A stretch of DNA of 32,857 nucleotides, from contig JAUYGN010000071.1 of assembly GCA_030690545.1 (NCBI GenBank), positions 1-32,857 on the forward strand. The letters run 5' to 3'. Of this stretch, positions 6,553 to 21,081 are shown piece after piece. The notes under the pieces were generated by a model. It did not search any database. It worked only from the letters and a program-made list of their open reading frames with translations, and was not told the origin of the DNA. How positions within the stretch are numbered: the first letter of the stretch is position 1; every line of letters starts with the position of its first letter. The stretch comes from Solirubrobacteraceae bacterium (lineage in GTDB: Bacteria; Actinomycetota; Thermoleophilia; Solirubrobacterales; Solirubrobacteraceae). The position numbers were made by a program, and so were the translations under genes.

Positions 6553-6735
6553 ACGGAACGCGAGTCTATCGCGCGATGTCGCGCGACCCCCGGTGGACCC
6601 GAGCGCGACCGGCGGGCCCACGCGCGAACGCGGCTCCCTCCGGCGGCTTTGGGAGACTAGGCAGCGTGGCGAGCCGCTCGCGCGGTGGCGCGTGACCGCC
6701 CGGTATCGTGGAAGTTCTTTGATTTAGCAAGTAAG

Positions 6736-6753
6736 GTATGTCTTGTGTCTATA
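6736..6753 (+). promoter_or_regulatory. Candidate CbbR site at the cbbR start
   Basis: GTATGT-N7-CTATA lies in an AT-rich island (about 6715-6760) that stands out from the surrounding GC-rich DNA. The same 6+7+5 arrangement recurs upstream of glpX at 15180-15197. On the minus strand it reads TATAG-N7-ACATAC, which fits the loose T-N11-A rule of LysR-type regulators. It overlaps the predicted GTG start, which would suit autorepression. Confidence 0.45.
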
Positions 6754-7692
6754 ACTTTGACGCAGCTGCGTAGCTTCCTCGCGGTCATGCGGGGCGGCTC
6801 GGTCACGGCCGCCGCCGACGAGCTCGTCGTGACCCAGCCGTCCGTCTCCGCCGCCGTCGCGGCGCTCTCGCGCGAGCTCGGCACTCCCGTCACCGAACGC
6901 GAGGGACGCGGCATCCGGCCGACCGCGGCCGGCAACGCCTTCGCGCCCTTCGCCGCCGATGTCATCGGCCTGCTCGAAGAGGGACGGCGCGCCGCCCGCG
7001 AGGCGGCGCACCTCGCCGATCGACGGCTGCGCCTGGCGGCCGTCACGACGGCGGCGGAATCCTTCGTGCCACCGCTCATGCGGGCGTTCGCGCAGAGCAA
7101 CGACTCGATCGGCCTGACGCTCGCCGTCGGCAACCGCGAGCAGGTCCTCGATCTCGTCCTCGACCACCGCGCCGACGTCGCGATCGGCGGGCGGCCACCA
7201 CGCGACCCGCGCGTCCAGGCGACGCCGATCCTGCCCAACGACTTCGTCCTGATCACCGCACCCGACGACCCGCACGCCGCCGGCAGCACGGTCGACGCCG
7301 CCGAGCTGGAGCGCCGCGTCTGGCTGATGCGCGAGCCGGGCTCGGGCACGCGGATCGTCAACGAGGAGTTTCTCGCCGCGGCCGCACTCGAGCCGCAGAC
7401 GTTGACGCTGGGCTCCAACGGCGCGATCAAGCAGGCCGCCCGCGCAGGACTCGGGATCGCGTTCATATCCCGGGCCGCGGTCGCGCTCGAGCTCGACCAC
7501 GGGCTGCTCGCGTCACTGCCCGTGCGTCATCGGCCGGCCTCGCGGCGCTGGTATGCGATGTGCTCGACCGTCGGACCGCGCCGCGCGGCCGTCGAGCGGT
7601 TCATGACGTTCGCCGCCTCGCCGACGGCCCGCGAGGCGCTCGCAAGCGGTTCGGAGCAGGCGATCGCCACGAGGCCCGTGCGCGGACGCTAG
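6745..7692 (+). CDS. cbbR: CbbR-type LysR family transcriptional regulator of CO2 fixation genes
   Basis: A 315-residue LysR-type activator. The winged helix-turn-helix is N-terminal (LTQLRSFLAVMRGGSVTAAA, then TQPSVSAAVAALSRELG). The effector domain carries features I associate with CbbR rather than LysR proteins in general: VGNREQVLDLVLDHRADVAI leading into GRPP at residues 149-152, REPGSGTR at 196-203 and SNGAIKQAARAGLGIAF at about 224-240. CbbR proteins sense Calvin-cycle metabolites and switch on the cbb operon. GTG 6745 is chosen because MSITLTQLRSF matches the family start and TAAGG lies eight bases before it. A GTG at 6685 would add 20 untypical residues. The gene is tail-to-tail with the end of the cbb operon, whereas the classical layout is divergent. 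Confidence 0.87.
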   Translation: MSITLTQLRSFLAVMRGGSVTAAADELVVTQPSVSAAVAALSRELGTPVTEREGRGIRPTAAGNAFAPFAADVIGLLEEGRRAAREAAHLADRRLRLAAVTTAAESFVPPLMRAFAQSNDSIGLTLAVGNREQVLDLVLDHRADVAIGGRPPRDPRVQATPILPNDFVLITAPDDPHAAGSTVDAAELERRVWLMREPGSGTRIVNEEFLAAAALEPQTLTLGSNGAIKQAARAGLGIAFISRAAVALELDHGLLASLPVRHRPASRRWYAMCSTVGPRRAAVERFMTFAASPTAREALASGSEQAIATRPVRGR

Positions 7693-7722: not shown

Positions 7723-8184
7723 TCAGGCCGCTCGACCGCTGAGCAGCACCTGCTCGGTCGGCGCGCGCTCGCCCTCGACGTGCGTGACGGGCTTGCCCAG
7801 CCCGCGGACCTTGCTCGGCAGGTCCAGATGCACCCAGCGCGACAGACGCCGCGGCAGCGTCGAGATGATGATCTCGTGGATCTCGCGCTCGTGCAGGGTG
7901 TCGGAGATCGCGGCCATCGGGTCGGCGTCGCCGACGTGTCCGCTGACGTCCGCTCCGACCGCCTCCCGCAGCGGCTCGAGCGCGAGCGCGAGCTGCGCCG
8001 CCGCCTCCTGACGACCGGCGACCTCGGGGTCGACGACGCGATGCAGCCCGCGCGGCGTGGCCGGGACGAGGAGATGAAACTCGGCCGGACCGGCCTGCGC
8101 TCGTTGTCGCACCGCCTCCAGCAGCCGCTCGGTGGCTGCGGTGCGGTTGGCGACGATCAGCACGCGGCGCACGGTCCCTGTCAT
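7723..8184 (-). CDS. Universal stress protein-like (UspA fold) protein, last gene of the cbb operon
   Basis: A 153-residue protein starting MTGTVRRVLIVANRTAATERL, a Usp-type first strand and loop. It continues through an amphipathic helix rich in Ala/Glu to HEIIISTLPRRLSRWVHLDL and LGKPVTHV. That C-terminal segment is typical of a Usp-like family in actinobacteria. The ATP-binding G-x2-G-x9-G(S/T) motif of classical UspA is not evident. ATG 8184 is preferred over the upstream TTG because GAGGAG lies eight bases before it. It lies about 200 bases downstream of the PRK gene on the same strand, separated by a large hairpin, so it may be expressed partly independently. It has no established role in carbon fixation. 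Confidence 0.7.
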   Translation of the reverse strand: MTGTVRRVLIVANRTAATERLLEAVRQRAQAGPAEFHLLVPATPRGLHRVVDPEVAGRQEAAAQLALALEPLREAVGADVSGHVGDADPMAAISDTLHEREIHEIIISTLPRRLSRWVHLDLPSKVRGLGKPVTHVEGERAPTEQVLLSGRAA

Positions 8185-8330
8185 GGGTGAGGCTCCTCTG
8201 GACGCTTGTAACAAAAAGTACGAGCACGGAGCGTGTCACGTCTCGGCGATCGGTCCGATCGAAGTTCCTCGTTGCGTTACGGCCGTCTCAGAGAGCGAGC
8301 CCGCGGTTTCCTGAAGCAGCGCTTCTGCCG

Positions 8331-8392: not shown

Positions 8393-9346
8393 CTAGCCCT
8401 GCGGAGTAGCGGACGCCGGCGCCTGCGCCTGATCGGCGCGCGTCCCCTCGCCGCCGAGCGCGACGGTGGCGCGTGCGGTGACGAGGTGGTAGAGCACGAG
8501 CACCTGGACGATCGCCAGCGACTCGGAGCGATGCAGCTCGGTGCCGACGGTGAACTCGCCAAGACGCTCGGAGCGCAGGTGGCTTGCGAAGTGCATCCGC
8601 TCCCAGACGGACTCCTCGATCGCCGAGCCGAGCGCTGGGTCGATGTCGCCGGGAACGAACAGCCGATGCTCGGTATCGCTCTCGTCGACCGTCACGCCCT
8701 TGCCGCCGGGCTCGGCGAAGTCCGTCAGATCGGGATGGACGAGGCCCTTGCGCAGGACGATCTCGGCGTCGAGATGCGACTGATCGCCGCGGCTTCCCGG
8801 CATGAACGAGACGACGAGGTCGGCCCAGCGCTGCTGCGGACGGATGTACAGCTCCGAGTCCGGCTCGCGGCGGTCGAGCTCCTCGAGGACCTGATCGGTC
8901 GTGTAGCCGCGGCGCGAGCAGTCGCGCTGGACCTTCCACTGACGGCGCAGCTCCTCCGGCGGGGCGAGGAAGACACGCACGTCGTAGCAGTCGCGCAGCG
9001 CCTCGGTGTGGTAGCCGAGCAGGCCCTCGATCAGCGTGAACTGCGCCGGCTTCGTGTAGACCGGCGGACCGAACGTGCCGTCCTTGTGCTGATAGACGGG
9101 CTTGAGGATCGCATTGCCGGCGCGCAGCTCGGCGAAGTGGCGCTCCATGATGTCGATGTAGTTGCAGTCCGGGTGCAGCGGCGTGATCTGATGCTCGGCG
9201 CGCTGACGACGGTCATAGCGGTGGTAGTCGTCGGCGGCGACGTGCGTGACGTTGTTCTCGCCCAGCATGCGGACCAGCCCGCGGGAGAGCGTGGTCTTGC
9301 CGGTTGCGGAGTCGCCGACGACACCGAGGATGATCGGACGGGGCAC
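8393..9346 (-). CDS. cbbP: Phosphoribulokinase
   Basis: Phosphorylates ribulose 5-phosphate with ATP to ribulose 1,5-bisphosphate, the RuBisCO substrate. The P-loop GDSATGKTT occupies residues 11-19. The PRK/uridine-kinase segment HVAADDYHRYDR and the sugar-phosphate region TPLHPDCNYIDIMERHFAEL follow, and then IEGLLGYHTEALRDCYDVRV with the Walker-B-like acid. At 317 residues it is a little longer than most bacterial PRKs. The final 20 residues (TRADQAQAPASATPQG) are low-complexity. The start is a GTG with AGGAG seven bases upstream, 16 bases after the cbbX stop. Its place behind cbbLSX makes the assignment to PRK rather than uridine kinase secure. Confidence 0.95.
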   Translation of the reverse strand: MPRPIILGVVGDSATGKTTLSRGLVRMLGENNVTHVAADDYHRYDRRQRAEHQITPLHPDCNYIDIMERHFAELRAGNAILKPVYQHKDGTFGPPVYTKPAQFTLIEGLLGYHTEALRDCYDVRVFLAPPEELRRQWKVQRDCSRRGYTTDQVLEELDRREPDSELYIRPQQRWADLVVSFMPGSRGDQSHLDAEIVLRKGLVHPDLTDFAEPGGKGVTVDESDTEHRLFVPGDIDPALGSAIEESVWERMHFASHLRSERLGEFTVGTELHRSESLAIVQVLVLYHLVTARATVALGGEGTRADQAQAPASATPQG

Positions 9347-9362: not shown

Positions 9363-10301
9363 CTAACTGACGTTACCAGGCGCGGTCGGCTTGGCGTCGT
9401 CGTCGGGCGATTCGCCCTCCTCGTCGCCGAACAGCGAACTCGCGAGAATGTCTTCGGCCTTGATCGTCACGAGATCCTCGCGCGTGAGGTCCTCGCGGTT
9501 TGAGTACAGGCGGCCGGCCTGCCGCATGCGGGCACGATCGATCGCGTTGCGGATGCTGCGCCCGTAGGCGAAGCGCGGGCGCTCGACGCGCCGGTTGATG
9601 TACTCCCGGAACGCCTCACGCGCCTCGGGCTCGAACTCGTACTGCTGCTGACCCATCATGAGATCGGCGATCTGGACGAGCTCGTCGGGCGTGAAGTCGG
9701 GGAAGTGCAGGTGGTGGGCGACGCGCGAGCCCATGCCCGGATTGGACTTGAAGAACGTCTCCATCCGGTCCTTGTAGCCGGCGAGGACGACGACGAGGTC
9801 GTCGCGCTCGGTCTCCATGACCTGCAGCAGGATCTCGATCGACTCCTGGCCGTAGTCGCGCTCGTTCTCGGGGCGGTACAGGTAGTACGCCTCGTCGATG
9901 AACAGCACGCCGCCCTTGGCGCGCTTGAGCACGTCGCGCGTCTTCGGCGCGGTGTGCCCGACGTACTGCCCGACGAGGTCGTCGCGCGTGACGGAGACCA
10001 CCTTCGGCTTGGCGATGTAGCCAAGCCGATGGAGGATCTCCGCCATCTTCAGCGCGACGGTCGTCTTGCCGGTACCGGGATTCCCGGTGAACGTCATGTG
10101 CAGCGAAGGACGCGACGAGTCGAGCCCTGCCTCACGACGCAGCTTGTCGATCACGAGCAGCGCGGCCATCTCGCGGATGCGCTCCTTGACCGGTCCGAGG
10201 CCGACGAGCTCGCGATCGAGCTCGGACAGGACCGACTCGACGGCGTCTGCGTCGTCGAGCGCCTTGACGGCGCTCGGCAGGGTTTCGATCGTCTGTGCCA
10301 C
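9363..10301 (-). CDS. cbbX: CbbX, red-type RuBisCO activase (AAA+ ATPase)
   Basis: A hexameric AAA+ remodelling enzyme that pulls on the large-subunit C-terminus to eject inhibitory sugar phosphates from RuBisCO. Walker A GNPGTGKT is at residues 73-80 and Walker [12 protein letters not shown] at about 132-142. Between them lie the pore-loop region [20 protein letters not shown] and GHTAPKT. Sensor and arginine-finger segments follow ([14 protein letters not shown]). At 312 residues it is normal length plus an acidic tail ([14 protein letters not shown]). The GTG start abuts the cbbS stop with no gap. Its presence indicates that the RuBisCO here belongs to the red-type lineage. Confidence 0.96.
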
Positions 10302-10766
10302 CTACTCGCCCGCCGAGCCGTTCGTCGACCCGGTCTTGGCCGCGTAGCGCGAGCCGTGCGGGTTCTGATCGACGGCGTACGACGTGATCGTGTAGCGGAT
10401 CACGCGGTCGTTGGTCTCCTGGCGCTCGAGCTTGAAGCCGGGCTCGACCGCCGGACGGTTGACGATGAACGACATCGCCGACGTCTGACGACCCAGCGAG
10501 CGGTCGTAGGCGACGATCTTCACGTACACGTCGCCGTGCGCCTCGATGCAGGCACGCACGTCGCGCATCGCGACGTCGACCTCGTCCTCGGTGAGGTCGA
10601 ACATCGGCGGCGACCACATCTCCCACAGCCCGTTGCGCGGGTGCGGGTCGTCGGTGTACTCGACCATGATCGACCAGCCGTTGCGCAGCGCGTAGGCGAC
10701 CTGCGCCTGGATCTGCTCGTCGGTCAGGTCCGGCAGGAAGGAGAACTGTCCCTGTGTGAGTCTCAT
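10302..10766 (-). CDS. cbbS: RuBisCO small subunit, form I
   Basis: This 154-residue small subunit begins [19 protein letters not shown] and continues with the conserved core [19 protein letters not shown] and [13 protein letters not shown]. The segment [19 protein letters not shown] matches the family's strand and helix order. Red-type subunits carry a C-terminal beta-hairpin extension, seen here around [21 protein letters not shown] further polar tail of about 20 residues ([17 protein letters not shown]) makes it long even for that class. ATG 10766 has the strong site GGGAGGA and lies 14 bases behind the cbbL stop. CbbS caps the L8 core to make L8S8. Confidence 0.94.
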
Positions 10767-10780
10767 GTCTGTGTCCTCCC

Positions 10781-12282
<1,502 letters not shown>

Positions 12283-12293
12283 TGAGATAAAGC

Positions 12294-12330
12294 AAAAGAT
12301 CGAGGCTTTTACATCAACCTCTTGCTATAG
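12294..12330. promoter_or_regulatory. AT-rich operator-like element between comB-like gene and cbbL
   Basis: AAAAG-ATCGAGG-CTTTT (12294-12310) is an inverted repeat just upstream of the proposed -35. It is followed at 12325-12330 by CTATAG, the same half element seen at the two other candidate CbbR sites. The stem is too AT-rich to be a good terminator for the comB-like gene, so an activator site is more likely. Confidence 0.35.
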
Positions 12331-13050
12331 GTCCGCTTGCCCGTCGGCGGCTGCGGCGGCAGCAACCTCGGCGGCCGTCAGGACGGCCGCTCCGTCGACC
12401 ATCGCCGTCAGCCGGCCGACGGCGTCGACGATCGACTCCTGCGCGCAGAACTCGATGTCCGACTCCAGCCCCTCGCGTCGCAGCCCGATCGAGCCGCCGC
12501 TCGCCGCGAGCGCCTCGAACGGGCTCGCGTAGGAGGCCGCCAGGGCCTCGGCGATCCGCGCCGCGTCGCTGCGCTCGCCGTCGAGCGCCGCGCTGATGCG
12601 GCCGGCGAGGTAGACGTCCTCGAGGCTCACGCGCCCGTCGGTGCCGGCCGCGATCAGCAGCACGTCGGCGCTGCCGGCGAGCTGCTCGCAGACGGCGCCC
12701 AGGTTCAGCAGGGACGCGACGAGCACCTCGTCGGCGACGGCCGCCGCGGCGACGATCGCCGGGGCGCCGTTCGTCGTCGCGAGCACGAGCTCGAGCCCGC
12801 GCGGCGGGCGCGTCTCCGCCGGCGAGTTGCCGAGATCGAAGCCCGGCGCCCGCGCGCAGCCGACCTCCCCCGCCATCACGCGCTCGGACGTCCTCAGCGC
12901 GCTCGCCGCGTCGATGCTGCCGGCGACGAGCACGCGCTCGTAGCCCGAGGCGAGCGCGTACGTGATCGTCGACGTCGCGCGCAGCACGTCGATGACCACG
13001 GCGGTGCCGGCCGGACGGACGTCCGTGCCGAGGAATGCGACGTCGATCAT
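12325..13050 (-). CDS. ComB-family (2-phosphosulfolactate phosphatase-like) acid phosphatase inside the cbb operon
   Basis: A 241-residue protein matching the ComB fold throughout. VVIDVLRATSTI is at 18-29, GFDLGNSPAE at about 70-79, VLATTNGAP at about 89-97, SLLNLGAV at 113-120 and AAGTDGRVSLEDVYLAG at 134-150. Founding ComB enzymes are Mg-dependent and hydrolyse 2-phospho-3-sulfolactate in coenzyme M synthesis. Coenzyme M synthesis genes are not evident in this window. The gene sits 36 bases behind fba and 92 bases before cbbL on the same strand, so a role in handling phosphorylated Calvin-cycle acids or RuBisCO by-products is my inference. The ATG at 13050 has only a weak ribosome site. 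Confidence 0.85.
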   Translation of the reverse strand: MIDVAFLGTDVRPAGTAVVIDVLRATSTITYALASGYERVLVAGSIDAASALRTSERVMAGEVGCARAPGFDLGNSPAETRPPRGLELVLATTNGAPAIVAAAAVADEVLVASLLNLGAVCEQLAGSADVLLIAAGTDGRVSLEDVYLAGRISAALDGERSDAARIAEALAASYASPFEALAASGGSIGLRREGLESDIEFCAQESIVDAVGRLTAMVDGAAVLTAAEVAAAAAADGQADL

Positions 13051-13086: not shown

Positions 13087-14109
13087 CTAGACCGCGGAGC
13101 GAACGCCGGATGCGTAGCGCGCCGCCATCTCCTCGAGCGACAGCGGCGTGTAGTCGCCGGCGTGGCCGGCCATGCCGAGCTCCTGCATGCGCTGCGTGCA
13201 GATCAGCTTCTGGCCGGCGCGCGCCGCCTTGCCGACACCGCGAGGATCCCAGTCGCCGGGCTTGTCGCGCAGGTGCTCGCGCACGAAGGCGGTGATCGCC
13301 AAGCGCCCGTCGGTGTCGATGTTGACCTTGCGCACGCCGTGCTCGATGCCACGCTGGATCGCCGAGATCGGCACCCCGAAGCCGGCGTCGACCTCGCCGC
13401 CGGCGGCCTTGACGCGCTCGACGATGTCGGCGGGGACGCTCGAGGATCCGTGCATGACGATGTGCGTGTCGGGCAGGCGGCGGTGGATGTCCTCGATGAT
13501 CTCCATCGCGAGGATGTCGCCGTCGGGCTCGCGCGAGAACTTGTACGCGCCGTGGCTCGTGCCGATCGCGACGGCGAGGGCATCGACGCCGGTGCGCTCG
13601 ACGAACTCCTCGGCCTGGGCCGGATCGGTCAGGCAGATCTCGCCGGAGCCGACGCCGTCCTCCATGCCGCCGAGCGTGCCGAGCTCGCCCTCGACGGTGA
13701 CGCCGCGCGCGTGGGCGTAGTCGACGACCTTCTTCGTGACGGCGACGTTGTCCTCGAAGTCCAGCGGCGTCTTGGCGTCCTCGCCGAGCGAGCCGTCCAT
13801 CATGACGCTCGTGAAGCCGAGCTCGATCGCGCTGATACACGTCTCCGGCGAGTTGCCGTGGTCCTGATGAAGGGCGACCGGAATGTCCGGGTAGGTCTCG
13901 GCCGCAGCCAGCATCATGTGGTAGAGGAAGTGATCGCCGGCGTACGAACGAGCACCGCGCGAGGCCTGCACGATGACGGGAGACTGCGTCTCCTGGGCGG
14001 CTTCCATGATGCCCTGGATCTGCTCCAGGTTGTTGACGTTGAAGGCGGCGACGCCGTAGCCGCCGGCGGCGGCCTCGTCGAGTAGCTGTCGCATGGTCAC
14101 GAGCGGCAT
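13087..14109 (-). CDS. fba: Class II fructose-1,6-bisphosphate aldolase, Calvin-cycle type
   Basis: A zinc-dependent aldolase that condenses dihydroxyacetone phosphate with glyceraldehyde 3-phosphate, and probably also with erythrose 4-phosphate to sedoheptulose 1,7-bisphosphate. The zinc and catalytic motifs are present: PVALHQDHG with the catalytic Asp, [19 protein letters not shown] with a zinc His, and VMHGSSSVP with another. [14 protein letters not shown] is the phosphate-binding NxDT segment. At 340 residues it has the length of the Calvin-cycle subtype. The start has a perfect AGGAGG and follows the glpX stop after four bases, so the two are co-translated. Confidence 0.95.
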
Positions 14110-14113
14110 GTGG

Positions 14114-15124
14114 TCATCCTCCTGCGGAATAATTGGGGACGGGTGCGGGGGTGCTCTCCACGATCCGGCGATACGAGCCGGGCCGGACGATCAGCGACTG
14201 GGTGGAGATCCAGCCGGCGGCGGTGCGGCGGGGCGCGCCCAGCATCGTGCCGCCGGTGATGCCGCAGGCGGCGAAGATCGCCGGGCCACGGACGAGGTCG
14301 TCGGCGTCGAGCACCTCGTCGAGCGAGATGCCGGCGGCGACGATCGCCTCGCGTTCGGTGTCGCGCTGGGGCGCGAGGCGCGTCTGCATGCCGCCGCCGA
14401 GGACCTTCACCGCACAGGCGGCCATGATCCCCTCGGGAGTGCCGCCGACGCCCATCAGCAGGTCGATGCCGGTACCCGGCAGCAGCGCGAACATCGCGCC
14501 GGCGACGTCGCCGGCGCTCGGCATGATCACGCAGACGCCGAGCTCGCGCAGACCGGCTGCGAGCTCGACGTGGCGCGGCTTGTCGAGGATCAGCACGCGC
14601 ATCTGATCGACCGGCTTGCCGAGCGCGGCGGCGACGCTCTTGACGTTCCACTCCGCGTCCTCGCGCAGGTCGATCGCGTCGCGCGCGTCGGGGCCGACGA
14701 CGAGCTTGTCCTGGTAGTGACCGGGACCCGGCGACCACAGGCAGCCGTCGCCGGCGAAGGCGATCGTCGTCAGCGAGCCGGGCAGGCCGGCGGCGCAGAG
14801 ATCGGTGCACTCGACCGGATCGACGGCGATGTCGAAGCGCGGCCCGTCGCCGTCGCCGAGCTGCTCGCCGTTGAAGAGCATCGGGGCGTTGTCCTTCTCG
14901 CCCTCGCCGATGATCACGGTGCCAAGGCCCTTCGTCTCGCCGAGAACGTGGCGCATCGCCTCGGTCGCGGCGCCGTCGGCGGCCTTGCCGTCGCCGAAGC
15001 CGGCGTACGCGTTCGCGGCCAGCGCGGCGACGCGGACGGCGCTCAGCGCCAGCGACTCGAGACTCGCAGGCAGCTCCGTGGCCGCGCTGCGATCAGCGTC
15101 GACTGGCTCCTCCACCAGGGACAT
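14114..15124 (-). CDS. glpX: GlpX-type class II fructose-1,6-bisphosphatase (possibly also sedoheptulose bisphosphatase)
   Basis: First gene of the cbb operon, 336 residues. Metal-site segments are [13 protein letters not shown] (residues 71-83) and the DPxEGT motif, which reads DPVECT at 102-107. The normally invariant glycine is thus Cys, while Asp, Glu and Thr are retained. What follows, [10 protein letters not shown], resembles the cyanobacterial dual FBPase/SBPase (NLCAxGxxGS). Later [20 protein letters not shown] and [12 protein letters not shown] are typical GlpX. In the Calvin cycle it would hydrolyse fructose and perhaps sedoheptulose bisphosphate. ATG 15124 has GAGGATGGAG upstream. 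It is divergent from the rhodanese gene. Confidence 0.93.
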
Positions 15125-15179
15125 GGCTCCATCCTCGCGTTGTCTGACTTTGGATTCAAGCGAAATGTTCGGCTCTTTC

Positions 15180-15197
15180 GTATGTGAAAAGGCTATA
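15180..15197 (+). promoter_or_regulatory. Candidate CbbR site in the glpX / MBL-rhodanese divergent gap
   Basis: GTATGT-N7-CTATA, identical in fixed positions and spacing to the element at the cbbR start. It lies 56-73 bases upstream of the glpX ATG within an AT-rich patch that also holds CTTTC/GAAAAG inverted arms. The position is right for LysR-type activation of glpX and could affect the divergent gene too. Confidence 0.48.
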
Positions 15198-15242
15198 GAT
15201 GCCCGGTCGCTACCGCGGGAAACCGCTATGTATCGTCGCAGG

Positions 15243-16613
15243 ATGCTCTTCCGCCAGGTGACACACGACGATCTTGGCTGCGCGTCCTACCTCGTCGGTG
15301 ACGACGGGGCGGGCGTCGCGGCGGTCGTCGACCCGCGCCTGGAGATCGGCGTCTATCTCGACCTTGCACGGTACATGGGCGTGCGCATCGAGCACATCCT
15401 CGAGACCCACAACCACGCCGACCACGTCTCCGGACACGGACGGCTCGCCGTGGCGACGGGCGCGACGATCCACATCCACCGCCTCGCCGAGCCCGACTAC
15501 GAGCACGAGACGTTCGACGACGGCTGGGAGCTCGAGCTCGGCAGCGTCGTCGTGCGCGCGCTGCACACGCCCGGTCATCGCCCCGAGCACACCGCGTTCG
15601 CGCTCGTCGACCGCGCCCGCGGCGACGCTCCCTGGGCGGTCCTCAGCGGCGACTCGCTGTTCGTCGGCGACGTCGCGCGGCCCGACCTCGCGATCGACCG
15701 CGACGAGGGCGCGCGCGGGATCTTCGACAGCCTGCACGAGCGGCTGCTGACGCTGCCCGACAGCTGCGAGCTGTGGCCCGGGCATCTCGGCGGCTCGATG
15801 TGCGGCGGACCGGGGATGGACATGAAGACGTCCTCGACGATCGGCTACGAGCGCGCCCACAACGCGTTGCTGCGCGAGCCCGACATCGGGCGCTTCGTCG
15901 AGCGCTCGATCGCGACGCTCGGGCCGCAACCGCCGAACTTCGAGGCGATCGTGGCACTCAACCGCGGCGACCTGCTGACCGACGACGTGCCGGCACGACC
16001 GCTCACGCCGCGCCAGGTGCAGCTGAAGTGCGGCGAAGGCGCGCTCGTCGTCGACGTCCGCACCGAGCAGCAGTTCGACGAGGCGCACATCCCCGGGGCC
16101 GTCTGCGTCACGGCGCTCAGCGCCGGCTTCGGAAGCCGGCTGGCCTGGATCGCCGACCGCGACCAGGAGCTGCTGCTCGTCGGCCGCGACGACGACGACG
16201 CACAGCACGCCGCGCGGCTCGCAAGCGCGGTCGGCATCGACAAGCTCGCCGGGTACCTGCACGGCGGCATGACGAGCTGGCGCGAGGAGCGCCGGCCGGT
16301 GGGGCAGATCGAGCGCCTGGCGATCGGCGACCTGCCCGCCCGCGCGGACCGGCTGCAGATCCTCGACGTGCGCGAGCGGGCCGAGTGGGACGCCGGTCGG
16401 ATCCCCGGCTCGACGCACGTGCCCTACCACGACATCGACGCGATTCCGGACGGGATCGACCCGGCGCGGCCGGTCGCCGTCGTCTGCGCGTCCGGCCAGC
16501 GGGCCGCGGTCGCCGCGAGCCTGCTCGCGCGCCACGGCGCCGAGCACGTCGTGCACGTCGTCGACGGCGGCGTCGGCGCCTGGGAGCGCGCCGGGCACCC
16601 GATCGAACGCTGA
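15243..16613 (+). CDS. Metallo-beta-lactamase fold hydrolase with two rhodanese domains (persulfide dioxygenase-like)
   Basis: About 456 residues in three domains. The N-terminal MBL domain (about 1-240) has THNHADHVSGH, the TPGHRPEHT histidine and LSGDSLFVGDVARPDL, the layout of ETHE1/CstB-type persulfide dioxygenases that oxidise glutathione or CoA persulfide with a mononuclear iron. The first rhodanese domain (about 255-350) has LLLVGRDDDDAQ where the catalytic Cys loop should be, so it is probably inactive. The second (about 360-455) has CASGQR and is predicted active. ATG 15243 is preferred because MLFRQVTHDDLGCASYLVG is the family's usual N-terminus. ATG 15228 is possible. It probably detoxifies or oxidises sulfane sulfur. 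Confidence 0.87.
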   Translation: MLFRQVTHDDLGCASYLVGDDGAGVAAVVDPRLEIGVYLDLARYMGVRIEHILETHNHADHVSGHGRLAVATGATIHIHRLAEPDYEHETFDDGWELELGSVVVRALHTPGHRPEHTAFALVDRARGDAPWAVLSGDSLFVGDVARPDLAIDRDEGARGIFDSLHERLLTLPDSCELWPGHLGGSMCGGPGMDMKTSSTIGYERAHNALLREPDIGRFVERSIATLGPQPPNFEAIVALNRGDLLTDDVPARPLTPRQVQLKCGEGALVVDVRTEQQFDEAHIPGAVCVTALSAGFGSRLAWIADRDQELLLVGRDDDDAQHAARLASAVGIDKLAGYLHGGMTSWREERRPVGQIERLAIGDLPARADRLQILDVRERAEWDAGRIPGSTHVPYHDIDAIPDGIDPARPVAVVCASGQRAAVAASLLARHGAEHVVHVVDGGVGAWERAGHPIER

Positions 16614-16704: not shown

Positions 16705-17283
16705 TTACCCGCGCAACTGCTCGAGCGCCTCGGGGGTGTCGACATCGGTGGCGTCGCACAGATGCCCGCACTCGATGCGGTGGACGCCGATCGCCTTCAT
16801 CACCTGGCGCGCGCCGGCGTCGCCCTCGAGCTGCGTGAGCTGCGCGAAGTAGTCGCTGCCGAGCGCGACCGGGTGGCCGGGCATGCCGTCGTAGACGGCG
16901 CGCGCCCGCGTCTGGGCGCCGTGCTCGGCGGCGAGGCCGGCGAAGCGGGCGATCACCTGCGGCGTGATGCGCGGCATGTCGCCGAGCGTCAGCACGACGG
17001 CGTCGGCATCCGCGATCGCCTCGATGCCGCAGCGCAGCGACGCCGCCTGCCCGTCGGCCCAGTCCTCGCAGACGACGGGCTCGGCAAGGCCGAGGTCGAC
17101 GCCCGCGCGGATCTGCTCCGCGCGGGCGCCCAGCACGACGACGATGCGCTCGATCGCCGGCACCGCCTCGACGGCACGCAGCGCGTGCTCGAGCAGCGGG
17201 ATCCCATCCAGCTCGGCCAGCTGCTTGGCCGTCGAGCCGAAGCGCGAGCCGGATCCCGCCGCCAGGACGACGCCTGCGATCAC
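16705..17283 (-). CDS. mocA: MocA-type molybdenum cofactor cytidylyltransferase
   Basis: A 192-residue nucleotidyltransferase of the MobA/MocA family. The signature VVLAAGSGSRFGSTAKQL starts at residue 5, with TLGDMPRITPQVI as the metal-binding acid segment and a late GDAGARQVM. The chain ends with the C-terminal CDATDVDTPEALEQL (normally D-I-D-T-P). CTP-using members attach CMP to Mo-molybdopterin to form MCD, the cofactor of CO dehydrogenase and xanthine dehydrogenase family enzymes. That fits its place as the last gene of the cox operon. The GTG start overlaps the coxM stop by four bases (GTGA). CTP over GTP preference is inferred from context. Confidence 0.88.
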   Translation of the reverse strand: MIAGVVLAAGSGSRFGSTAKQLAELDGIPLLEHALRAVEAVPAIERIVVVLGARAEQIRAGVDLGLAEPVVCEDWADGQAASLRCGIEAIADADAVVLTLGDMPRITPQVIARFAGLAAEHGAQTRARAVYDGMPGHPVALGSDYFAQLTQLEGDAGARQVMKAIGVHRIECGHLCDATDVDTPEALEQLRG

Positions 17284-18122
17284 GCGGCGCTTGCCGTCGT
17301 CAGCGCGCGACGCGTCAGCACCCGCGCGAGATGCTGCTTGTACTCCGGCGTGGCGTTGAGGTCGCCGAGCGGGCTCGTCGCATCGGCGGCGAGCGCGGCC
17401 GCCGCCGCGATGTGCTCGGCGTCGAGCGGCTGGCCGCGCAGCGCGTCCTCCGCCGCGCTCGCGCGCAGCGGCGTGGCGCCCATGTGCGTCAGCCCGATGC
17501 GGACGTCCTGGCAGACGCCGCCGTCGGACTTGACGAGCGCGCTGACGCCGACCATCGCCCAGTCCTCGGCGCGGCGGTTGAACTTCTCGTAGCCGTAGCC
17601 GTAGCCGGTCAGCGCCGGCAGCCGCACCTCGGTGAGCACCTCACCGTGCGCGACGGTCGTCGTCAGGTAGCCCTCAAACAGGTCGGCGGCCGCGATCTCG
17701 CGCTCGCCGTCTGGGCCGCGGACGACGACCGAGCCATCGCACGCGAGCAGCACGGCCGGCAGGTCGGCGGCCGCGTCACCGTGAGCGAGCGAGCCGCCGA
17801 TCGTGCCGCGGTTGCGCACCTGCTGGTCGGCGATCTGCGTGGCGACCGCCGCGACGAGCCCCATGTCCGCGCGCGCCTGCAGCTCGGCATGGCGCGTCAG
17901 GGCGCCGATCCGAAACGAGTCGCCGCCGGTCTGGATGCCGCGCAGCTCGTCGACCCTGCGCAGGTCGACGAGCAGCGAGGGCGCTGCGAAGCGCAGCTTC
18001 ATCAGCGGCACGAGCGAGTGGCCGCCGGCCAGCAGCTTGGCGTCCTCCCCACCCTCCGCCAGCAGCGCGATCGCGTCGTCGACGGACTCCGCCACAGCGT
18101 AGTCGAACTCGGCGCCGATCAT
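17280..18122 (-). CDS. coxM: CoxM-like FAD-binding subunit of a molybdenum hydroxylase
   Basis: The 280-residue medium subunit carries electrons from the molybdenum subunit's iron-sulfur partner to FAD. The FAD motif AKLLAGGHSLVPLMKLRFAAP is near residues 28-48 and the second motif TIGGSLAHGDAAADLPA near 120-136, both standard for CoxM/CutM proteins. The C-terminal CO dehydrogenase flavoprotein domain (KFNRRAEDWAMVGVSALV) is complete. Its ATG overlaps the coxL stop (ATGA) and its stop overlaps mocA, so all are translationally coupled. Length and motifs give no sign of damage. Confidence 0.93.
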   Translation of the reverse strand: MIGAEFDYAVAESVDDAIALLAEGGEDAKLLAGGHSLVPLMKLRFAAPSLLVDLRRVDELRGIQTGGDSFRIGALTRHAELQARADMGLVAAVATQIADQQVRNRGTIGGSLAHGDAAADLPAVLLACDGSVVVRGPDGEREIAAADLFEGYLTTTVAHGEVLTEVRLPALTGYGYGYEKFNRRAEDWAMVGVSALVKSDGGVCQDVRIGLTHMGATPLRASAAEDALRGQPLDAEHIAAAAALAADATSPLGDLNATPEYKQHLARVLTRRALTTASAA

Positions 18123-20583
18123 GACCGACCTCCTTCGGGAATCGTCGGGCCCGAGCCTGCCGAGCCTTCGCCCTGCGCGGGCAGCGACGCCCCCTGCTCG
18201 CTGTCGCGCGGGCCGTTGCCGTCGCCGCGCGCCTGCTCCAGTGCCTGCCAGACGCGCAGCGGCGTGAGCGGCATGTCGATGAACGAGATGCCCTCGTGGC
18301 GCAGCGCGTCGATCACCGCGTTGACGATCGCCGGCGTCGCCGCGATCGTGCCCGCCTCGCCGATCCCCTTGACGCCGAGCGAGTTGGATGGCGACTTCGT
18401 CTCCGTGCGATCGGTCTCGAAGCTCGGGACCTCCATCGTCGTCGGCAGCGCGTAGTCGACGAACGTGCCGGTGACGAGCTGACCGCGCTCGTCGTAGACG
18501 ACCTGCTCGTAGATCGCCTGGCCGATGCCGTGCACGATGCCGCCGTGGACCTGGCCGTCGATCAGCATCGGGTTGACCGCCGGCCCGCAGTCGTCGACCG
18601 CGACCCAGCGCACGACCTCGACCTTGCCGGTCTCGGGATCGACGTCGACGACGCAGACGTGCGTGCCGAACGGGAAGACGAAGTTCGACGGGTCGTAGAT
18701 CAGCGCCTGCTCGAGGCCGAGCTCCATGCCCTCGGGCATCTTCGTCGCGTCGACGTAGGCGCAGCCGGCGACCTCCGCGAGCGTCATGCCCTGGTCGGGA
18801 TCGCCCTTCAGCGAGAACCGGCCGTCGCGCACCTCGATGTCGGCCGGATCGGCCTCGAGGTTGTGCGCGACGATCTCGCGCGCCTTCTGGGCGATCTTCT
18901 CGGCCGCGTGCGCGACCGCGACGCCGCCGACCGACAGCGAGCGCGAGCCGTACGTGCCGAGGCCCATCGGGCCCGTCGCGGTGTCGCCGTGGACGATCTC
19001 GACGACGCTCGGATCGGTGCCGACGCGATCGGCGACGATCTGCGCGAAGCCGGTCTCGTGGCCCTGGCCGTGCGGCGACGCGCCCGTGTAGACGGTCACC
19101 GACCCGGTCGGATGGACGCGCACGAGCGCCGACTCGTAGAGGCCGATCCCGAGGCCGAAGCCGCTCGGACCGACCGCCCGCGAGGGCGCCAGGCCACAGA
19201 TCTCCGTGTACGTGGAGAACCCGATCCCGCGCAGGACGCCCCGCGAACGCAGGTCTGCCTGCTCGGCGCGGAAGGCCTCCATGTCGACGATCTCCAGCGC
19301 CCGGTCGAGCGCCGCCTCGTAGTTGCCCGAGTCGTACGTGATGCCGTATGGCGTCTCGTAGGGGAACTGCTCGGGCGCGATGAAGTTCCTGCGGCGCAGC
19401 TCGATCGGGTCGATCCCCAGCTCCTCGGCGAGCTGATCGATCATGACCTCGAGCATGTGCGTCATCTCCGGCCGGCCCGCACCGCGGATCGCGTCGGTGA
19501 AGAACTTGTTCGTCAGCACGCCGACGATGTCCGTCTGCACCACCGGGATCGCGTAGCAGCCGGTCATCACGAACGCCCCGAGCTCCGGGATCATCGGCGT
19601 CAGCAGACCGAAGTAGGCGCCGAGGTCCTGGATGATCTTCGCGTGGAAGGCGGTGATCTTGCCGTCGGCCGTCGCGCCCATGCGGACGTAGTCGACCTGG
19701 TCGCGGCCGTGGTGCGAGACGGCCATGTTCTCCGAGCGCGTCTCGATCCACTTGACCGGCCGGCCGAGCTTGCGCGACGCCCACGCGCACATCGTCTCCT
19801 CGGCGCAGACCTGCAGCTTGCCGCCGAAGCCGCCGCCGACCTCGGGCGCGATGACGCGGACCTTGTCCTCGCTGATGCCCATCTGGACGGCGTAGAAGAG
19901 CCGCAGCAGGTGCGGCACCTGCGTCGAGGACCAGACCGTCAGCGCGCCGGCGCGGTACTCGGCGATGCAGCCGCGCGGCTCCATCGCCGCACCGGCGGTG
20001 CGGTGGTTGACGATGCGCCGCTGCACGACGACGTCGGAGGCGGCCAGCGCCTGCTCGATGTCGCCGCCGCCGCCCATCGACCACTCGTGCGTCTTGTTCG
20101 TGCCGAGCGACGCGTGGACGAGGACCTCGTCCTTCAGCGCCTGCTCGACGTCGATGACGACCGGCAGCGACTCGTACTCGACCTCGACGTCGGCGGCGGC
20201 ATCGACGACGACGTACTTGTCGTCACCGATCACGAGCGCGACGGCGTCGCCCATGTGGCGGACGTGGCCGCGTACGAGCGGCCAGCGCTCAGGGGTCTTG
20301 ATCTCGACGCCGGGCGGTGCCCAGGCCATCGGCAGCGGGGCGAGCAGGTCGCTCATGTCCTCGCCGGTGTAGACGGCCTTGATGCCGGGACGCGCCAGCG
20401 CGGCGGAGGCGTCGATCGCGACGACCCTGGCATGCGCCTCGGGCGAGCGCACGACGGCGGCGTGCAGCATGCCGGGCAGCGCGAGGTCGTCGACGTAGGT
20501 GGCGCGGCCGGTGATCAGCCGCGGATCCTCCTTGCGGCGCAGCGACTGGCCGACGTGCTTGGTGGGTGGAACCTCGACGGTGC

Positions 20584-20587
<4 letters not shown>
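18119..20587 (-). CDS. coxL: CoxL-like molybdopterin-binding large subunit, form II-type active site
   Basis: An 822-residue large subunit of the xanthine oxidase/CO dehydrogenase family. N-terminal [20 protein letters not shown] and the cofactor-binding [17 protein letters not shown] are standard. The C-terminal [20 protein letters not shown] holds the catalytic Glu. The active-site loop reads AIRGAGR at residues 366-372. Form I CO dehydrogenases have AYRCSFR with the Cu-binding Cys, and form II enzymes have AYRGAGR, so this is form II-like with Tyr changed to Ile. CO is therefore not an assured substrate. A 35-residue polar tail follows the last conserved helix. The ATG overlaps the coxS stop. 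Confidence 0.92.

Positions 20588-21081
<494 letters not shown>

What the first reader, a model, noticed from the sequence alone, without database searches (positions are those of the whole stretch)
12325..13050. ComB-family phosphatase embedded in a Calvin-cycle operon: candidate 2-phosphoglycolate or RuBisCO by-product phosphatase
The sequence shows a well-conserved ComB-like gene between fba and cbbL, all on one strand with short gaps. Known ComB acts on 2-phospho-3-sulfolactate, an alpha-O-phosphorylated carboxylate. RuBisCO's oxygenase product 2-phosphoglycolate has the same alpha-phospho-acid layout. No CbbZ or CbbY (HAD phosphatase) is present in the locus. I infer that this family was recruited as a non-orthologous replacement for phosphoglycolate or inhibitory sugar-phosphate removal, working beside CbbX. 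This is the strongest candidate here for an undescribed function.
Basis: partly seen in the sequence, partly recalled or inferred. Interest (0 to 1): 0.7.

Follow-up and report, generated by a model that had tools for sequence, protein, structure and literature searches.

The report
ComB phosphatase built into RuBisCO operons
In a group of soil bacteria that fix CO2, a phosphatase of a family named for making a methane-producer cofactor sits directly beside the gene for the CO2-fixing enzyme RuBisCO in nearly every genome that has it, which suggests, without yet proving, that it clears the toxic by-product 2-phosphoglycolate made when RuBisCO takes O2 instead of CO2.

Summary
An intact 241-aa ComB-family gene (PF04029, E 1e-55) lies at 12325-13050 (-) in the order glpX-fba-comB-cbbL-cbbS-cbbX-prk. 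The host is a Solirubrobacterales actinobacterium.

The linkage is real and recurrent. Across 232 genomes of the order, 21 carry this ComB type. In 15 it lies immediately upstream of form I cbbL; in 3 more it is in a divergent cbb cluster; in 2 the contig ends at glpX-fba-comB. One has no cbb genes nearby. A second Thermoleophilia lineage carries ComB in an fba-tkt-comB operon opposite lysR-rpe-prk. Five relatives carry a different ComB beside ComA, the phosphosulfolactate synthase; that type is phylogenetically separate.

So this ComB tracks RuBisCO, not ComA. The best reading is a non-HAD phosphatase for RuBisCO's waste product, most likely 2-phosphoglycolate; the genome also encodes glycolate oxidase GlcDEF. 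No substrate was tested.

Three RuBisCO genomes lack ComB, and no HAD phosphatase replaces it in their cbb loci. A sister ComB clade mostly lives in genomes without RuBisCO, so the older role may be general 2-phospho-acid repair. I found no published description of the linkage.

The parts
12325..13050 (-). comB-like gene, 241 aa, PF04029 2-phosphosulfolactate phosphatase family
13087..14109 (-). fba, class II fructose-bisphosphate aldolase (replaced by a class I aldolase in several relatives)
14114..15124 (-). glpX, class II fructose/sedoheptulose bisphosphatase
10781..12232 (-). cbbL, form I RuBisCO large subunit
10302..10766 (-). cbbS, RuBisCO small subunit
9363..10301 (-). cbbX, red-type RuBisCO activase (TIGR02880 over cut-off)
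8393..9346 (-). prk, phosphoribulokinase
7723..8214 (-). conserved 163-aa protein without a Pfam or NCBIfam match, recurrent in the cbb cluster of relatives
6685..7692 (+). LysR-type regulator, probable CbbR, recurrent beside the cbb cluster
12233..12324 (-). comB-cbbL gap, AT-rich, partly conserved within the genus; possible regulatory site, unresolved

Best explanation
The gene encodes a Mg-dependent ComB-family phosphatase that has become part of the Calvin-cycle gene set of Solirubrobacterales. It most likely hydrolyses 2-phosphoglycolate, the product of RuBisCO's oxygenase reaction, to glycolate and phosphate. This would keep 2-phosphoglycolate from inhibiting the cycle and pass glycolate to GlcDEF. 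Shown: gene integrity, ComB fold, kept family-conserved residues, recurrent cbb linkage, separation from the ComA-ComB pair, presence of GlcDEF. Inferred: Mg dependence (from the family), the substrate, and the physiological role.
For: Linkage: of 21 genomes of the order with this ComB type, 15 have it immediately upstream of cbbL on one strand, 3 have it in a divergent cbb cluster, and 2 have glpX-fba-comB cut by the contig end. Co-occurrence with form I RuBisCO is 18/24 against 3/208 (Fisher p 5e-19, not corrected for shared ancestry). comB stays in place while its neighbour fba is swapped for a non-homologous class I aldolase or lost (G005). A nested second ComB lineage lies in fba-tkt-comB | lysR-rpe-prk, in three genomes that have form I RuBisCO elsewhere. 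Five relatives carry a divergent ComB directly beside ComA (clade 100/100), while four genomes with the cbb-type ComB have no ComA at all. Chemistry: 2-phosphoglycolate is the only standard Calvin-cycle by-product with the 2-phospho-acid layout of known ComB substrates (established enzymology). GlcDEF is present in the host. In one large survey 416 Calvin-cycle genomes had no annotated phosphoglycolate phosphatase (PMC7895386), so missing enzymes are expected.
Against: No substrate evidence of any kind. G447, G452 and G523 have form I RuBisCO without ComB, so it is not obligatory. Unassigned HAD phosphatases exist in the host genome, and some ComB carriers have better Gph-like HADs (G013, G351, G355, G356). 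The Gaiellales-type sister clade sits near ppdK in genomes that mostly lack RuBisCO. One member of the cbb clade, G443, has no cbb genes nearby. The host does encode a ComA elsewhere.
Confidence: 0.55

Rival explanations
1. A general metabolite-repair phosphatase for 2-phospho-hydroxy acids (2-phospholactate, 2-phosphoglycolate and similar side products of lower glycolysis and DNA repair), placed in cbb operons because such side products rise during autotrophy; not specific to RuBisCO.
For: The sister clade lies near ppdK in genomes mostly without RuBisCO. G443 comB lies beside a gpmA-like gene. Mammalian phosphoglycolate phosphatase is such a repair enzyme, discussed with 2-phospholactate in several papers (one search list). 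ComB is scattered over many phyla without cbb genes in the fetched flanks.
Against: Within Solirubrobacterales this ComB type is almost confined to RuBisCO-encoding genomes (3 of 208 others have it), which a housekeeping repair role does not predict.
Confidence: 0.22
2. It is the annotated 2-phosphosulfolactate phosphatase, serving a ComA encoded elsewhere; its place in the cbb operon has no metabolic meaning.
For: Family name and fold. ComA is present in the host and in 9 of 13 ComB-cbb genomes of the 61-genome set.
Against: Scores below every NCBIfam ComB equivalog cut-off (141.5 against 235 at best). Four cbb-ComB genomes lack ComA, and 14 genomes have ComA without any ComB. True ComA-ComB pairs exist in the same family with a different ComB clade. 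The basic residue after the TTNG motif (R/K in the ComA-paired ComBs checked) is Pro in 20 of 21 of the cbb clade.
Confidence: 0.1
3. It removes another RuBisCO inhibitor, such as xylulose 1,5-bisphosphate or a carboxypentitol phosphate, working beside CbbX as CbbY does elsewhere.
For: Immediate neighbour of cbbL, in one cluster with cbbX. No CbbY in the locus.
Against: Those inhibitors carry primary sugar phosphates, not 2-phospho-acid esters. Beta-phosphoglucomutase/CbbY-type HADs are encoded elsewhere in the genome. The second lineage keeps comB with fba-tkt, apart from cbbX.
Confidence: 0.08

Closest known systems
ComB, 2-phosphosulfolactate phosphatase (PF04029, EC 3.1.3.71; structures 2z0j, 2yyv, 1vr0)
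   Same: Fold (TM 0.84-0.90) and family-conserved residues; about 30-39% identity to solved members.
   Different: Not beside comA but inside a RuBisCO operon; separate clade from ComA-paired ComB; below NCBIfam equivalog cut-offs; R/K after TTNG replaced by P.
CbbZ/Gph 2-phosphoglycolate phosphatase (HAD superfamily, TIGR01449)
   Same: Proposed reaction, and a phosphatase encoded with cbb genes; CbbZ carries out this step in Cupriavidus necator (PMC7486775).
   Different: Unrelated fold, no HAD motif; analogous, not homologous.
ComA-ComB gene pair of relatives G007, G460, G469, G470, G482
   Same: Same protein family, same bacterial order.
   Different: Divergent ComB clade, adjacent to phosphosulfolactate synthase, no cbb genes found nearby.

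Membership tests
ComB superfamily (PF04029) | Pfam profile match over gathering score | tested here: met
   188.7 bits against 26.4
ComB superfamily (PF04029) | ComB fold | tested here: met
   Model pLDDT 95.3; TM 0.84-0.90 to 2z0j, 2yyv, 1vr0 and no other fold
ComB superfamily (PF04029) | Residues conserved across the family | tested here: met
   D21, R24, E62, NSP 75-77, TTNG 92-95, N116, G136, D145, D198 kept
2-phosphosulfolactate phosphatase proper (coenzyme M / sulfolactate route) | Physical or phylogenetic association with ComA | tested here: not met
   Not adjacent; separate clade; four cbb-ComB genomes lack ComA. A ComA is encoded elsewhere in the host genome.
2-phosphosulfolactate phosphatase proper (coenzyme M / sulfolactate route) | NCBIfam equivalog cut-off | tested here: not met
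   Best 141.5 against 235; TIGR00298 102.7 against 175
2-phosphosulfolactate phosphatase proper (coenzyme M / sulfolactate route) | Hydrolysis of 2-phosphosulfolactate | not testable with these tools
   Needs an enzyme assay
CbbZ/Gph phosphoglycolate phosphatase (HAD) | HAD fold and DxD motif | tested here: not met
   ComB fold only; no HAD-motif ORF in the window
CbbZ/Gph phosphoglycolate phosphatase (functional class EC 3.1.3.18) | Encoded with the cbb genes | tested here: met
   20 of 21 genomes with this ComB type in the order, counting 2 cut by a contig end after glpX-fba-comB
CbbZ/Gph phosphoglycolate phosphatase (functional class EC 3.1.3.18) | Replaces, and so anticorrelates with, HAD PGP | tested here: inconclusive
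   No genome reaches the TIGR01449 cut-off, with or without ComB
CbbZ/Gph phosphoglycolate phosphatase (functional class EC 3.1.3.18) | Hydrolysis of 2-phosphoglycolate | not testable with these tools
   Needs an enzyme assay

The most novel reading that the evidence does not exclude
ComB-family proteins include a non-HAD class of 2-phosphoglycolate phosphatase, recruited twice into Calvin-cycle operons of Thermoleophilia from an older 2-phospho-acid repair role, and supply the missing first step of phosphoglycolate salvage in these trace-gas-type autotrophs.
Probability: 0.4. Interest if true: 0.7.

Novelty: new variant of a known kind. Interest (0 to 1): 0.58.

Why it matters
Every aerobic RuBisCO user must dispose of 2-phosphoglycolate, yet in one survey 416 Calvin-cycle genomes had no annotated phosphatase for it (PMC7895386). 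Bacteria with RuBisCO form IE that live on atmospheric trace gases contribute to carbon fixation in cold-desert soils (PMC9561532), and Solirubrobacterales are among them. If ComB is the enzyme, an annotation tied to coenzyme M would be corrected for a whole clade, and a question about phosphoglycolate salvage outside Proteobacteria and Cyanobacteria could be tested directly in one cultured species, Solirubrobacter soli.

Tried and rejected
Chance neighbourhood: rejected by recurrence over three families of the order and by persistence when fba is swapped or lost. A universal ComB-RuBisCO link: rejected; in the wider phylum many form I RuBisCO genomes lack ComB, and many ComB genomes lack RuBisCO. 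Of the 80 nearest ComB loci in named genomes, only the Thermoleophilia loci L016-L019 (cbbL) and L021, L025, L026 (prk, fba, tkt) carry cbb genes in the fetched flanks. Absence of HAD PGP as proof of replacement: rejected as uninformative. Literature searches for ComB with RuBisCO, cbbL or phosphoglycolate found nothing relevant; one paper reports comB moderately conserved near petRP/petJ in cyanobacteria (PMC9252766). The original ComB enzymology paper is not held. Promoter scan of the operon: nothing above chance.

Full report
OBSERVATION. The ORF at 12325-13050 (-) exists exactly as described. It is 241 aa and matches PF04029 at E 1.1e-55; it is the only copy in the host genome (3.53 Mb, 98.6% complete). 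It lies 36 nt after a class II fba and 92 nt before cbbL, on one strand, in the order glpX-fba-comB-cbbL-cbbS-cbbX-prk. CbbX passes its NCBIfam cut-off. A LysR regulator lies on the other strand past prk. The AlphaFold model (pLDDT 95.3, pTM 0.91) matches only the three solved ComB-family structures, with TM 0.84-0.90. All positions flagged as conserved across 115 ComB proteins are kept. dN/dS of 0.2-0.55 against relatives shows purifying selection. No HAD-motif ORF occurs in the window.

HOST. Named relatives of this ComB are Solirubrobacteraceae/Solirubrobacterales, including the isolate Solirubrobacter soli DSM 22325.

LINKAGE. In 61 relatives, ComB and form I RuBisCO co-occur in 11 genomes, always adjacent. 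Two further ComB genes (G003, G060) end at a contig edge, and one RuBisCO gene (G028) starts at one. I then searched all 232 held genomes of the order and fetched the loci. There are 21 genes of this ComB type. In 15 genomes comB is directly upstream of cbbL (G000, 1, 2, 4, 5, 6, 11, 13, 33, 43, 56, 507, 518, 520, 526). In 3 it is in a divergent cbb cluster: G389 glpX-fba-comB facing cbbLSX-prk-tkt, G440 glpX-fba-comB-prk facing cbbL, G457 comB-prk. In 2 glpX-fba-comB is cut by the contig end. In one (G443) there are no cbb genes nearby. The association with form I RuBisCO is 18 of 24 against 3 of 208 (Fisher p 5e-19; genomes share ancestry, so this is not a count of independent events). The position is kept although fba is a class II aldolase in some genomes and an unrelated class I aldolase in others, and is missing in G005.

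EXCEPTIONS. G447, G452 and G523 have form I RuBisCO and no ComB. In G523 the order is glpX-fba-cbbL with comB missing from its place. No HAD-motif gene sits in any of these loci. G028, G439 and G525 also lack ComB but are 75% complete or less, with contigs cut at cbbL.

SECOND LINEAGE. In L021, L025 and L026 (uncultured Actinomycetota), comB directly follows tkt in fba-tkt-comB, divergent from lysR-rpe-prk. All three genomes carry form I RuBisCO elsewhere.

TREE. The first tree (115 ComB proteins) puts all Thermoleophilia ComBs of this type in one clade (100/99). It splits into the cbbL-linked clade (99/93) and a Gaiellales-type clade, mostly found near ppdK, in which the fba-tkt-comB lineage is nested (100/99). 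With the added genomes (56 proteins) the cbb clade has 21 rows (97/93), including G443. The ComA-paired ComBs (7 rows, 100/100) are distant. Most ppdK-type carriers checked lack RuBisCO; G157 has form I elsewhere and G342 a broken RuBisCO-like gene.

NOT COENZYME M. ComA (PF02679) is present in the host at another contig, in 9 of 13 ComB-cbb genomes, and in 14 genomes without any ComB; it is absent from G006, G043, G056 and G060, which have the cbb-type ComB. In five relatives a divergent ComB is directly beside ComA. So two ComB types coexist in one order with different partners. A basic residue two positions after the TTNG motif (R or K in the ComA-paired ComBs checked and in most others) is Pro in 20 of 21 of the cbb clade; it lies at the start of a helix. 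This is compatible with loss of a sulfonate contact but is only a lead; the fba-tkt-comB lineage keeps R.

WHY 2-PHOSPHOGLYCOLATE. Known ComB substrates are 2-phospho-hydroxy acids (family knowledge; the primary paper is not held). Among standard Calvin-cycle by-products only 2-phosphoglycolate has this layout. The host encodes an intact glcD-glcE-glcF cluster. Strong GlcD hits (430 bits or more, a threshold chosen after seeing the data) occur in 9 of 13 ComB-cbb genomes against 10 of 48 others (p 0.002). In C. necator the same pair of steps, CbbZ then GlcDEF, starts phosphoglycolate salvage (PMC7486775).

WHAT DOES NOT HOLD. The claimed anticorrelation with CbbZ/CbbY is not shown. None of 36 genomes with or without ComB reaches the TIGR01449 cut-off. 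Only two of 20 form I loci elsewhere in the phylum show a HAD-motif ORF near cbbL. The host has at least six unassigned HAD proteins. Its genus lacks the better Gph-like HADs (about 108-118 bits) seen in several class relatives, including the three genomes of the second lineage, so replacement is possible but not demonstrated.

VERDICT. The protein is a genuine member of the ComB superfamily but fails the tests that would file it as the coenzyme-M enzyme. It is proposed to work like CbbZ without being a CbbZ homologue. The linkage is solid; the substrate is inference.

Noticed in passing
window 17280-21081 (-): Genes for a CO dehydrogenase-type molybdenum enzyme (FAD, Mo and 2Fe-2S subunits) lie close to the cbb operon, fitting a CO- or trace-gas-fuelled autotroph; the active-site loop was not checked.
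   Followed up: partly
L096, L097, L098, L020, L023: In Gaiellales-type genomes comB recurs about 1-2 kb from ppdK (pyruvate phosphate dikinase), mostly without RuBisCO.
   Followed up: partly
L107, L108, L109: In small-genome actinobacteria a ComB lies about 5 kb from a RuBisCO-like protein in what looks like a sugar-acid catabolic cluster with amidohydrolase, DeoR-type and LacI-type regulators.
   Followed up: no
G000:C137:2875-3594: A second RuBisCO-like stretch in the host genome is interrupted by a TGA stop.
   Followed up: no
L180 8497-10112: The one cbb-clade ComB without cbb genes (G443) is divergent from a gpmA-like phosphoglycerate mutase gene.
   Followed up: no
window 12233-12324: The comB-cbbL gap holds an AT-rich segment partly conserved within the genus, perhaps a cbbL promoter or CbbR site; most other genera have shorter gaps of about 1-57 nt.
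   Followed up: partly
window 14805-16613 (+): A metallo-beta-lactamase plus double rhodanese protein, persulfide-dioxygenase-like, is divergent from glpX.
   Followed up: no
L190 10185-11213: In G520 cbbL is matched in two overlapping pieces, so it is probably frameshifted or carries a sequencing error.
   Followed up: no
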